Of a DNA stretch of 35,237 nt, positions 3,374-30,761 are shown piece by piece; the stretch's first letter is position 1; each line of letters begins with the position of its first letter. Origin of the DNA: a virus; the IMG/VR virus record IMGVR_UViG_3300045936_000143, positions 1 to 35,237 of that record. The stretch is one strand, 5' to 3'. The notes beneath the pieces are model-generated. The model was given only the letters and a program-made list of their open reading frames with translations, was not told where the DNA came from and did not search any database. The position numbers and the translations under genes are program-made.

Positions 3374-4026
3374 ATGGCGCGCAGACACGGAAGCTACGGA
3401 CAGATCCTGATGGACGATGATCCGCCGGCCGAGCCGACAGCACCGTCGCCGGTGCTCGTCGCCTCGATGAACAAGTGGTCGCTCGATCTGAAGCGCGACC
3501 GGGCGGACGTGACGGCGTTCGGCGACACGAACAAATCCTCAAGAGGGTAAGACGGGGGCACGGCATGGAGACATGTCGCTGCGAACTGACTCTGATTGAC
3601 TTGAACCCTGCGATGGGAACAAGGGGCAAGCGAAAGCAGCCTGAGAGACTAAGCGAGTCGGCATCCTTCGGGATGGTGCGATAGTCCGACCTCACGGGAA
3701 TAGGAACCGTGAGAGGTGGCAGAAATGACCACCCGCCATCGAAAACGATGGTTACGAAGTAACAGCGTGACGTACAGGGGTTGCCGGACATCAGCGGGAG
3801 TCTGGGCGGGTTCTGGGATGCACCGAACGTCGAGATTTTCGACGTCGCCATGGGCGACACGGCGGCGTTCCTGAAGCTGATCCCGTCCTCGCTGGATGCG
3901 ACGTACTTCTTCAGCGGCATGGCGTTCATTGACGCGAACATCGACGTCGACTCGGGCGGGGCCGTCACGATCGGCGGATCGTTCGCGGCGGCCGGCGCAT
4001 GGACCCGCGATCCCGTGACGCCGTAA
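3374..4026 (+). CDS. Major tail tube protein gene, split by a group I intron
   Basis: The gene is interrupted. Exon 1 is 3374-3536 and exon 2 is 3770-4026; joined they give 420 nt and a 139-residue protein. Exon 1 starts with an ATG preceded by GAAAGGA. Splicing joins AAA-T to AC-GTA and creates the continuous segment DVTAFGDTNK-Y-VQGLPDISG, a typical strand-turn of tube proteins. Exon 2 then carries GGFWDAPNVEIFDVA and the C-terminal FAAAGAW region. The tube protein forms the stacked rings through which DNA passes. Without splicing, translation would stop at 3548-3550 after 58 residues. The joint falls between the first and second bases of the Tyr codon. The tube assignment is from family resemblance and position after the terminator. 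Confidence 0.85.
3537..3769 (+). ncRNA. Group I self-splicing intron, 233 nt, without an ORF
   Basis: All core helices of a group I ribozyme can be drawn in order. P1: 3535-3539 with 3544-3548, with a U3536-G3547 wobble exactly at the 5' splice site. P2: 3561-3567 with 3572-3578, loop GAGA. P3: 3586-3592 with 3655-3661. P4: CUUG 3600-3603 with CAAG 3620-3623. P5: CCC 3606-3608 with GGG 3615-3617; J4/5 and J5/4 are both AA. P6: 3624-3627 with 3639-3642, capped by a GAAA loop. P7: GACUA 3647-3651 with UAGUC 3682-3686, plus G3645-C3687 with bulged A3646. P8: 3662-3666 with 3671-3675, loop UUCG. P9 hairpins: 3691-3713, 3715-3733, 3736-3751, 3751-3763. The exon ends in U3536 and the intron ends in G3769. 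Splicing restores the tail-protein frame. Confidence 0.93.
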
Positions 4027-28173: not shown

Positions 28174-28521
28174 ATGGCTGCAGGCACGTATCACTTGGCG
28201 ATCGAACAGGGCGCCGTCTTCGCCCGGACGTTTGCGTGGACCACCGCCGCCGGCGATCCGGTCGCGCTCGATGGCTATACCGCCGCGATGCAGCTCCGGG
28301 CGATCCCGCAGGGGCCAGTGGTCGCCGACTGGTCGGGGTCGCTCGCGGTCCAATCTCCGGGCGCCGTCGCGCTGCATGTGGCGGCCACGGAGACCGCGCT
28401 GCTCACCGTCCACAGTGGGGTCTACGACCTCGAGCTGACGCCGCCGAGTGGGCCGGCCGACACGTTCCGGTTCCTGCAGGGCATGTTCAATGTGAGCCGC
28501 GAGGTGACCCGCGATGTCTAG
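28174..28521 (+). CDS. Baseplate/fibre-associated protein
   Basis: A 115-residue beta-rich protein with a RBS GAGGAGAGG. The opening [19 protein letters not shown] and the ending [12 protein letters not shown] are common in phage proteins encoded before tail fibres. The gene overlaps the fibre gene by eight bases, suggesting the two work together, probably as a fibre mount. Function is by context. Confidence 0.6.
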
Positions 28522-30454
28522 CACCATCACTGTGACCGATCCGTCGGTCGTGAACGGCGCGTCGGTGCCGCCAACCGTCATCACCGTCGATCTCGCGATC
28601 CCCGGGCCGCCGGGACCGCCAGGACCCCAGGGCGAACCCGGCACCGCGGCGCCACACGCGCCGACGCACGAGGCCGGTGGCAGCGATCCGGTCGCGGTCG
28701 CGGATCTCGCCGGCGCTGACGTCCTGGCCCTCACGAACACGAGCAATCTGTTCGAGGGCGACCAGACCATTGACGGCAATCTGATCGTCACCGGCGAGAT
28801 CAACCCGGCGCGCTGGGCCGAGCAGCGCCCGAAGGTTGAGGCGCTCGAGCGCAGCGAACGCGCCACGGGCGTCCGCACGCTGCTCTCGAATGACCTCGTG
28901 GCTGGCATGTCGCTCCGCCACGACGCGGAGCTGAGCGCGGGCCACATCACGGTCGGCAACTACGACACGCAGACCTATCAGCCGCTCGTGCTCGAAGCTG
29001 AGCGCCTCTCGCTCGTCACGGGGGTCTACCCGCCAGGGCTCGCGGAGCATGTGCGCGTGCATCCGTCCGGCGGCGTCACGGTCGGGGAGGGCGTGGACCA
29101 CGAGGTCGATCCGGGTGTCGGGATCGTGCGGGCGCGCGGGCTGGAGGCGCCTCTCTCGCCGGATGTGCTCACGCACGCCGGCGGCTATCCCGGCGGCGGC
29201 GGCTTCCTCCGCGCCGATGGCACCTTCGCCGATCCGCCGCGCTCGACGGCGACGCTGCTGGCGTATGACTGGAACAGCACGACCTCGCCGCCGCCGACGA
29301 GCAGTCAGCTCCGGCTCGACGCGCCGGCGCCCTACACGGCGGTGACAACGCTCTGGGCGCGGCTGATCACCAGCGACGGGATCGACGCGACGCGCCTGCT
29401 GCTGGCGATTCAGCCTGAGACGCGCCTCATCGTGCAGGACAGGAATGACTCCGCGCTCTACGTCGATCTCGCGACGACGGGTCCCGCGATGGACCAGGGC
29501 GGCTACGTCGCGATCCCGGTCGCCTGGCGAGCCAATGGCGGAGCGCTCCTCAGCAATCAGGCCGTGCTGCTGGCCATTGGCCAGCGCGAGACGACGGCCG
29601 GGCCCGAAGGGCCGCCCGGGCCTCCGGGCCCGCAGGGCGATCCGGGCCCCCCAGGCGCGACGGGCCCCGTCGGGCCGACAGGGCCGGCTGGCCCGCAGGG
29701 GGCTAACGGGGAGCCGGGCGCAGCGGGCCCCGCCGGGCCTGCTGGCGCCCAAGGCCCGCAGGGCGATCCCGGCGCGGCGGGCGCACAGGGGCCGCCAGGC
29801 GCCCAAGGGGAGGCCGGTCCCGCTGGGGTGACCGGACCGCAGGGCGTGCCTGGCCCCGCCCCGGCGGGCACGGGGTTCGTCAAGGTCACCAACGGGGTCC
29901 TCGAGACCCCCAGCGGCACGCTGCCGCTGGCCGCGATCGAGTCGCTGGCGGCGTCCCGTCTCCTAGGCCGTGGGGACGGCGGCGCCGGTAGTCCGCAGGC
30001 GTTGACGGTTGGCAAAGGGCTGGCGCTGGCGGGCACGACGCTGTCGGGCACGGCGTCGAGCTTTATGGGCTACACGTTCAGTTCGACCACGACCGAGCCG
30101 CCGGCGAGTGCCGGCGTCCGGATGAACGGCGCGCACCCGTACACGGCGGTAACCAAGGTGTGGGTGCACTACCTCAACACGAATACCGAGGACATGTTCT
30201 TCGCGCTGACGCGGATGCAAGTCGGCTCCACGCTGGTCGTGCAGGACAAGGACGCGCACGCGCAGTTCGCCGAGTTCACGGTGACCGGGCCGGTCATCGA
30301 CAAGACCACGTATTGCGAGGTGCCCGTGGCGTGGAAGTCGAACGGGACGGCGCTGACCAACAACCAGGCCGTGCTCGTGCGGGAAACGTACGTGGTGACG
30401 CTCGCGATGCTGAGCGCGCTCGAGGCCAGGGTCGCGGCGCTCGAGGGCGCTTGA
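28514..30454 (+). CDS. Collagen-like tail fibre protein
   Basis: A 646-residue fibre. Residues 28-42 are a first short collagen-like part ([14 protein letters not shown]). HEAGGSDP then leads into helical and beta segments. FLRADGTF stands near 230. Residues 249-355 form a beta domain that is repeated at 517-625. Residues 363-447 have about 28 Gly-X-Y triplets, which should form a triple helix. The C-terminus is a short coiled coil ([13 protein letters not shown]). A trimeric, receptor-binding fibre is the best reading. Confidence 0.82.
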
Positions 30455-30533: not shown

Positions 30534-30761
30534 ATGCCCAGCGCTCCGCAGCGGATGTGCCCCACCCCGCACTGCGGCCGGTTGACGTCCGGCGGACTGT
30601 GCGGTCGGTGCCGGCGCCGGCAGGACCTGGCGCGATGGACCGTGACCGACCACATCATCGCGCTCCGTGATGGCGGCGAGCGGCTCGACCCGGCGAACTT
30701 TCAGTCGCTCTGTCGCGGTTGCAACGCGGCAAAAGCGATCACGCACGCGGTGCGCGGGTGA
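30534..30761 (+). CDS. Short HNH endonuclease
   Basis: A 75-residue HNH protein. CPTPHCG and CGRC form a zinc site. The beta-beta-alpha motif is TDHIIALRDGG, then N (PANFQSLC) and CNAAK. The HNH protein at 33175 has the same ends with about 45 further residues between them, so this is a shortened form. HNH enzymes next to terminase genes can assist DNA packaging. Confidence 0.75.
   Translation: MPSAPQRMCPTPHCGRLTSGGLCGRCRRRQDLARWTVTDHIIALRDGGERLDPANFQSLCRGCNAAKAITHAVRG

What the first reader, a model, noticed from the sequence alone, without database searches (positions are those of the whole stretch)
3374..4026. Compact group I intron inside the major tail protein gene
The tail tube gene is split by 233 nt that can be folded into a complete group I core (P1 to P9). 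It has a U-G pair at the 5' splice site, interlocked P3 and P7, and a G at the 3' end. Removal of exactly 3537-3769 restores the frame and a typical tube motif (GDTNK-Y-VQGLPD). The unspliced frame stops after 58 codons. Therefore the phage's most abundant tail protein must depend on RNA splicing. The intron has no homing endonuclease gene, although two HNH genes lie elsewhere in the genome. Group I introns are known from other phages, mostly in enzyme genes; I have not checked for a close example in tail tube genes.
Basis: partly seen in the sequence, partly recalled or inferred. Interest (0 to 1): 0.92.

Follow-up and report, generated by a model that had tools for sequence, protein, structure and literature searches.

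The report
Group I intron in phage tail gene
A short self-splicing RNA element interrupts the gene for this phage's tail tube protein and has to be cut out of the message before the protein can be made; such introns are known, but this one belongs to a large family that Rfam does not detect and that often sits in genes for virus shell and tail parts.

Summary
The finding holds, with one correction. A compact group I intron without an ORF splits the predicted major tail (tube) protein gene of a temperate-phage contig. Its exact extent is 3540-3769 (230 nt), not 3537-3769 (233 nt). Across 94 homologous intronless loci (76 distinct segments) the 230-nt excision always scores better, giving GDTNK-S-YVQGLPD. 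Rfam's Intron_gpI model does not match here. A covariance model built from 60 viral and metagenomic relatives, window left out, matches at 104.9 bits (E 3.5e-24); those 60 show strong covariation in P3, P5, P6 and P8. Both exons are under purifying selection (dN/dS about 0.1). All ten intron differences between the two known alleles fall outside helices. The intron's nearest relatives sit in a capsid gene and a probable virion gene of other phages, each after ..CCU, which suggests movement between virion genes. Introns in tail and capsid genes are already known (Twort orf142, LittleE, BAKA, crAss-like phages), so this is a new member of a known kind. More interesting is the large family that Rfam misses, found in ribonucleotide reductase and virion genes. 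Splicing itself was not tested.

The parts
3374..3539 (+). exon 1 of the major tail (tube) protein gene, codons 1-55 plus first base of codon 56; ends in U3539
   Evidence: Homologous to the N-terminal half of intronless tail proteins; PHROG major tail protein match of the spliced protein, E 2e-7
3540..3769 (+). group I intron, 230 nt, no ORF; last base G3769
   Evidence: R1 covariance match E 3.5e-24; excision of exactly 230 nt preferred in 94 of 94 homologous loci
3770..4026 (+). exon 2 of the major tail protein gene, codon 56 (last two bases) to stop
   Evidence: tblastn to relatives; dN/dS about 0.12 against L002
3536..3557 (+). P1 with internal guide: U3536-U3539 with G3554-G3557, U3539.G3554 at the splice site, 14-nt loop (proposed)
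   Evidence: Inference from comparison of window, L002, L081, L079; not covered by model R1
3548..3550 (+). in-frame UAA that ends translation of the unspliced frame within the P1 loop
   Evidence: also in the P1 loop in L002 and L079 by sequence
3558..3582 (+). P2 hairpin, 10 pairs
   Evidence: minimum free energy fold, pair check, no differences within it in L002
3586..3592 (+). P3 5' strand CUGACUC, pairs with 3655-3661
   Evidence: all 7 pairs show double changes across 60 relatives; window pairs 7 of 7
3600..3623 (+). P4 (3600-3603/3620-3623) and P5 (3606-3608/3615-3617)
3624..3642 (+). P6 and P6a with GAAA loop
   Evidence: 5 of 6 pairs with double changes, 100% of cells paired
3647..3651 (+). 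P7 5' strand GACUA, pairs with 3682-3686 and interlocks with P3
   Evidence: invariant in 60 relatives; sequence
3655..3661 (+). P3 3' strand GAGUCGG
3662..3675 (+). P8 hairpin with UUCG loop
   Evidence: 4 pairs with double changes, 97.5% of cells paired
3682..3686 (+). P7 3' strand UAGUC
3691..3752 (+). P9 (3691-3713), P9.1 (3715-3733) and P9.2 (3735-3752) hairpins
   Evidence: fold, pair check, conserved with compensating changes in L081/L079

Best explanation
Nucleotides 3540-3769 are a compact, ORF-less group I intron. The late tail transcript folds into the P1-P9 core. An external guanosine bound at P7 would attack after U3539, and the freed 5' exon would attack after G3769, joining AAAUCCU to ACGUACAG so that the tail tube protein GDTNKSYVQGLPD... 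can be translated. Unspliced mRNA gives only a 58-residue fragment, because a UAA lies 9 nt into the intron. The intron is a recent and sporadic arrival in this gene: related phages lack it, and its nearest relatives sit in virion genes of other phages. It belongs to a widespread phage intron family, many of whose members have homing endonuclease genes in or near them; this one probably lost its endonuclease or arrived without one. Shown: homology, boundaries, structure, selection. Inferred: catalysis, splicing in vivo, route of arrival.
For: Intronless homologues at the syntenic place fix the junction: 94 of 94 loci favour 230 nt. The held-out covariance model R1 hits at 104.9 bits, the only hit in the window, with no hit in 77 loci carrying intronless tail genes. 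In 60 relatives 97.7% of pair cells are standard, 19 pairs have double changes, and 0 of 500 shuffles reach this. An independent second allele (L002 and its copies in three assemblies) has the same intron: 95.7% identity, no indels, 10 differences, none in a helix (P about 0.0003), and exons with dN/dS 0.10-0.12. The same family splits an RNR gene in Roseobacter phage CRP-118 and a P22-type coat gene in MW202674, and a capsid gene in L081 whose join is exact. The BAKA tail-gene intron, proven by RT-PCR (PMC3706429), gives weak matches to both R1 and Rfam.
Against: Rfam Intron_gpI gives no match to the window at any reported level, and none at the family cores I checked except a sub-threshold full-length match in L011. 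No transcript or splicing data exist. P1 is short (two C-G and two U.G pairs) and no clear P10 was seen. The intron subgroup was not assigned.
Confidence: 0.95

Rival explanations
1. A group I intron, but with the first reader's boundaries 3537-3769 (233 nt) and product GDTNKYVQ.
For: U3536 is also a U, the frame is also restored, and a hairpin can form at 3535-3548.
Against: All 94 homologous loci score lower with this product and have one more residue at the junction. The P1 it implies is broken in L002 by G3545C. L081 and L079 also splice after ..CCU before CAA.
Confidence: 0.03
2. The insertion has inactivated the gene (a broken tail gene in a decaying prophage, with a dead intron).
For: The gene is interrupted by stops and no splicing data exist.
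Against: dN/dS about 0.1 in both exons, intron helices free of change between alleles, and the same allele in several assemblies. No second tail tube gene was seen, but this was not searched exhaustively.
Confidence: 0.03
3. The second half is reached by ribosomal bypassing or internal initiation (a TTG at 3781), not by splicing.
For: An ORF with TTG start exists at 3781-4026.
Against: A covarying group I core with the exact exon U / intron G ends would be unexplained, and intronless homologues are single-chain proteins.
Confidence: 0.01

Closest known systems
Twort orf142 group I introns (Landthaler and Shub 1999; orf142 later identified as tail tube gene, PMC11878797, PMC10136302)
   Same: Group I introns in a phage tail tube protein gene, self-splicing
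   Different: Three introns, two of subgroup IA2, in a staphylococcal myovirus with exon skipping; here a single intron whose family has only 3 nt between P7 and P3, which leaves no room for the P7.1/P7.2 hairpins usual in subgroup IA (that rule from general knowledge)
Mycobacteriophage BAKA/Optimus minor tail gene intron and LittleE capsid gene intron (PMC3706429)
   Same: Virion structural genes; 265 nt and no endonuclease in BAKA; exon-end U and intron-end G; splicing shown by RT-PCR; a similar CAGAAAUGA loop near the 3' end
   Different: Only a weak match to model R1 (17.5 bits); BAKA and LittleE give sub-threshold Rfam matches whereas the window gives none
Introns of the R1 family in phage RNR genes (CRP-118, L011) and P22-type coat gene (MW202674)
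   Same: Same core with R1 scores of 95-113 bits
   Different: Other host genes; longer or ORF-bearing loops in many members
Group I introns of crAss-like phages, including in MCP (PMC7886860), and of Jug phages (PMC12363816)
   Same: Introns in core phage genes, including capsid
   Different: Not compared by sequence here; large phages with many introns per genome

Membership tests
Group I intron | Interlocked P3 and P7 helices with P4-P6 and P8 in canonical order | tested here: met
   All helices present in the window; covariation in 60 relatives in P3, P5, P6 and P8; P7 invariant
Group I intron | U at the end of the 5' exon paired with G of the guide; G at the intron end | tested here: met
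   U3539 and G3769 follow from the homologue-defined junction; the U.G partner G3554 is a proposal
Group I intron | Precise insertion in an otherwise intact gene | tested here: met
   Intronless homologues at the syntenic place
Group I intron | Match to Rfam RF00028 above its gathering score | tested here: not met
   No match. This is a feature of the model, not of the class; PMC11878797 states that the Rfam model lacks subgroups
Group I intron | Guanosine-dependent self-splicing | not testable with these tools
   Needs in vitro or in vivo splicing
R1 family (this work) | Covariance match to relatives with the window left out of the model | tested here: met
   104.9 bits, E 3.5e-24
Mobile (endonuclease-bearing) intron | Homing endonuclease ORF inside the intron | tested here: not met
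   Intron of 230 nt is filled by the ribozyme core; no intron ORF
Phage major tail (tube) protein | Homology to annotated major tail proteins | tested here: met
   phrog_9522 E 2.1e-7 and phrog_10528 E 5e-7 for the spliced protein; none for the unspliced 58-aa ORF. No Pfam match

The most novel reading that the evidence does not exclude
The window's intron belongs to a large lineage of compact phage group I introns that Rfam does not detect. The lineage has spread repeatedly into late virion genes (major capsid, portal/adaptor, tape measure, tail tube) as well as RNR genes. Closely similar copies in different genes of related phages suggest movement between genes at ..CCU sites, possibly by reverse splicing or borrowed endonucleases. 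This would contradict the view that phage introns are confined to nucleotide and DNA metabolism genes.
Probability: 0.5. Interest if true: 0.6.

Novelty: new member of a known kind. Interest (0 to 1): 0.42.

Why it matters
One of the most abundant proteins of the virion depends on RNA splicing, so splicing must be efficient late in infection. Recent work asks why phage introns seem confined to nucleotide and DNA metabolism genes (PMC11878797). The family found here, missed by Rfam, is common in virion genes, so part of that pattern may come from detection and from which phages have been sampled. It also means that many 'split' capsid and tail genes in viral contigs are probably misannotated.

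Tried and rejected
Rfam at gathering and relaxed thresholds: no group I hit in the window; only the Transposase-2 (E 0.47) and togavirus frameshift (E 3.3) models, treated as chance. blastn of the whole gene in phages: nothing. blastn of the intron in phages: one weak but real lead (CRP-118, E 0.02), the rest chance; plasmids: chance matches only. A first pair count with a mis-typed structure string was discarded and redone. A query typed as an RNR fragment gave nothing useful for the question. Structure prediction of the spliced protein was not attempted because it is not encoded letter for letter in the window. The second HNH gene was not located. A clear P10 pairing was not found.

Full report
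Check of the observation. The tail gene begins at 3374 and its frame runs into a UAA at 3548-3550 after 58 codons; the downstream part resumes in another frame and ends at 4026. The joined protein matches PHROG major tail protein families, and the unspliced ORF matches none. The gene lies after a major head protein gene (58-1185), an HK97-gp10-like gene and a Tail_completion_gp17 gene, and before a tape measure gene. An integrase, both terminase subunits, RusA and a metallopeptidase lie further along, so the contig is a temperate siphovirus-type phage. The record is a viral contig of 35,237 bases.

Boundaries. Searches with the spliced protein found three contigs with the same intron (L002-L004, 94% amino-acid identity in exon 2) and distant intronless homologues (L005-L008). 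Those and relatives found through the capsid protein or the tail protein alignment read NK-x-YV without interruption. Comparing the two possible products on 94 homologous loci (76 distinct segments), excision of 230 nt (3540-3769) scored better in all 94, with no gap opposite the extra residue. Only U3539 joined to A3770 gives both the extra residue and the conserved tyrosine. R1 found no intron in 77 of these loci, so the intron is a sporadic insertion.

Is it a group I intron? Rfam RF00028 does not match. The conserved blocks TGATTGACTTG and GAGACTA..ATAGTCC led to more than 100 viral contigs and, through CRP-118 and L011, to RNR introns. In 102 of 111 of these the seven bases before TGATTGA pair at six or seven positions with the seven bases that follow GACTA plus three. 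An alignment of 60 members without the window (A1) gives P3, P4, P5, P6, P6a and P8 by RNAalifold. With P7 added, 97.7% of cells pair, 19 of 29 pairs have double changes, the covariation score is 0.519 against 0.162 in shuffles, and sliding the partners drops pairing to 45% or less. P7 itself never varies, so it is supported only by conservation and position. Model R1 built from A1 matches the window at 3584-3689 with 104.9 bits, E 3.5e-24, as its only match. It also matches L002-L004 and none of L005-L008. The motif used to collect the family was drawn from the window and CRP-118/L011, so the match of those blocks is partly by construction; the pairing of P3, P6 and P8 is not. A link to experimentally proven introns is the BAKA tail-gene intron (RT-PCR, PMC3706429), which matches R1 weakly (17.5 bits, E 0.014) and Rfam below threshold.

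Anatomy. P2 3558-3582, P3 3586-3592/3655-3661, P4 3600-3603/3620-3623, P5 3606-3608/3615-3617, P6 3624-3627/3639-3642, P6a 3630-3631/3636-3637, P7 3647-3651/3682-3686, P8 3662-3675, P9 3691-3713, P9.1 3715-3733, P9.2 3735-3752; every listed pair is standard. For P1, UCCU (3536-3539) can pair with GGGG (3554-3557). The GGGGG run and the ..CCU|CAA context recur in L081 and L079. All family members in A1 have three nucleotides between P7 and P3 on the 3' side, so the P7.1/P7.2 hairpins of subgroup IA (general knowledge) cannot be present; over half of viral introns in PMC11835236 are assigned to IA2. I leave the subgroup open.

Function of the host gene. Between the window and L002 the exons differ at about 11% of bases with dN/dS 0.10 (exon 1) and 0.12 (exon 2); the intron differs at 10 of 230 bases, none in a helix (probability about 0.0003 if placed at random). 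Both exons and the ribozyme are thus maintained, as expected if the spliced protein is used.

Origin. The closest intron, L081, sits in a major capsid gene (51.6% identical to the window's uninterrupted capsid protein) and its removal gives VKNL|VAIRAEQRGALAVYRP, exactly the capsid sequence; L079 sits near the start of another probable virion gene. Coding pieces next to family introns match ribonucleotide reductase, major head protein, portal/adaptor and homing endonuclease families, and L172 has one in a tape measure gene by sequence. This points to movement between late genes. The mechanism (reverse splicing, or an endonuclease acting in trans) is inference. These tallies come from the longest ORF near each intron and are rough.

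Comparison with what is known. Group I introns in virion genes are known: tail tube gene orf142 of Twort (three introns; PMC11878797, PMC10136302), capsid and minor tail genes of mycobacteriophages (PMC3706429), and MCP of crAss-like phages (PMC7886860). The finding is therefore a new member of a known kind. What may be new is the size and gene preference of a family that the Rfam model misses; PMC11878797 notes that the Rfam model is incomplete and asks why phage introns seem confined to nucleotide and DNA metabolism genes. My literature search covers only open-licence papers.

Noticed in passing
L142 (MW202674.1) 1184-2699: P22-type coat protein gene annotated as two separate CDS with a hypothetical protein between; the gap holds an R1-family intron (96.3 bits), so the capsid gene is probably misannotated.
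   Followed up: partly
L013 (OR420741.1, Roseobacter phage CRP-118) 1472-1873: Ribonucleotide reductase annotated as gp44 and gp45; an R1-family intron (112.8 bits) lies at the break.
   Followed up: partly
L081 4336-4562: 227-nt intron of the same family in a major capsid gene of a phage related to the window; removal restores VKNLVAIRAEQ.
   Followed up: yes
L172 5109-5219: R1-family intron in what looks like a tape measure protein gene (GFAKQNYTMLDNL); sibling contig L167 is 91% identical upstream.
   Followed up: partly
L038 and L051: Three R1-family introns each within a few kilobases.
   Followed up: no
L074 and L111: An R1-family intron and, a few hundred bases downstream, a second intron that Rfam does recognise (114.6 and 92.5 bits), apparently in one RNR gene.
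   Followed up: no
L133 and L137 (Omnitrophota MAG contigs): R1-type intron cores with identical P3/P8 in two MAGs; possibly phage sequence in bacterial bins.
   Followed up: no
window 3548-3550: The in-frame stop lies in the P1 loop in window, L002 and L079, so ribosomes reading unspliced RNA would stop before the ribozyme core.
   Followed up: partly
window 30534-30758: HNH gene just upstream of the small terminase gene, more likely a packaging-associated HNH than a homing enzyme; a second HNH match exists among the window ORFs but was not located.
   Followed up: partly
window 28514-30454: 646-aa ORF with collagen-like triple-helix repeats (PF01391, E 9e-14), probably a fibre protein.
   Followed up: no
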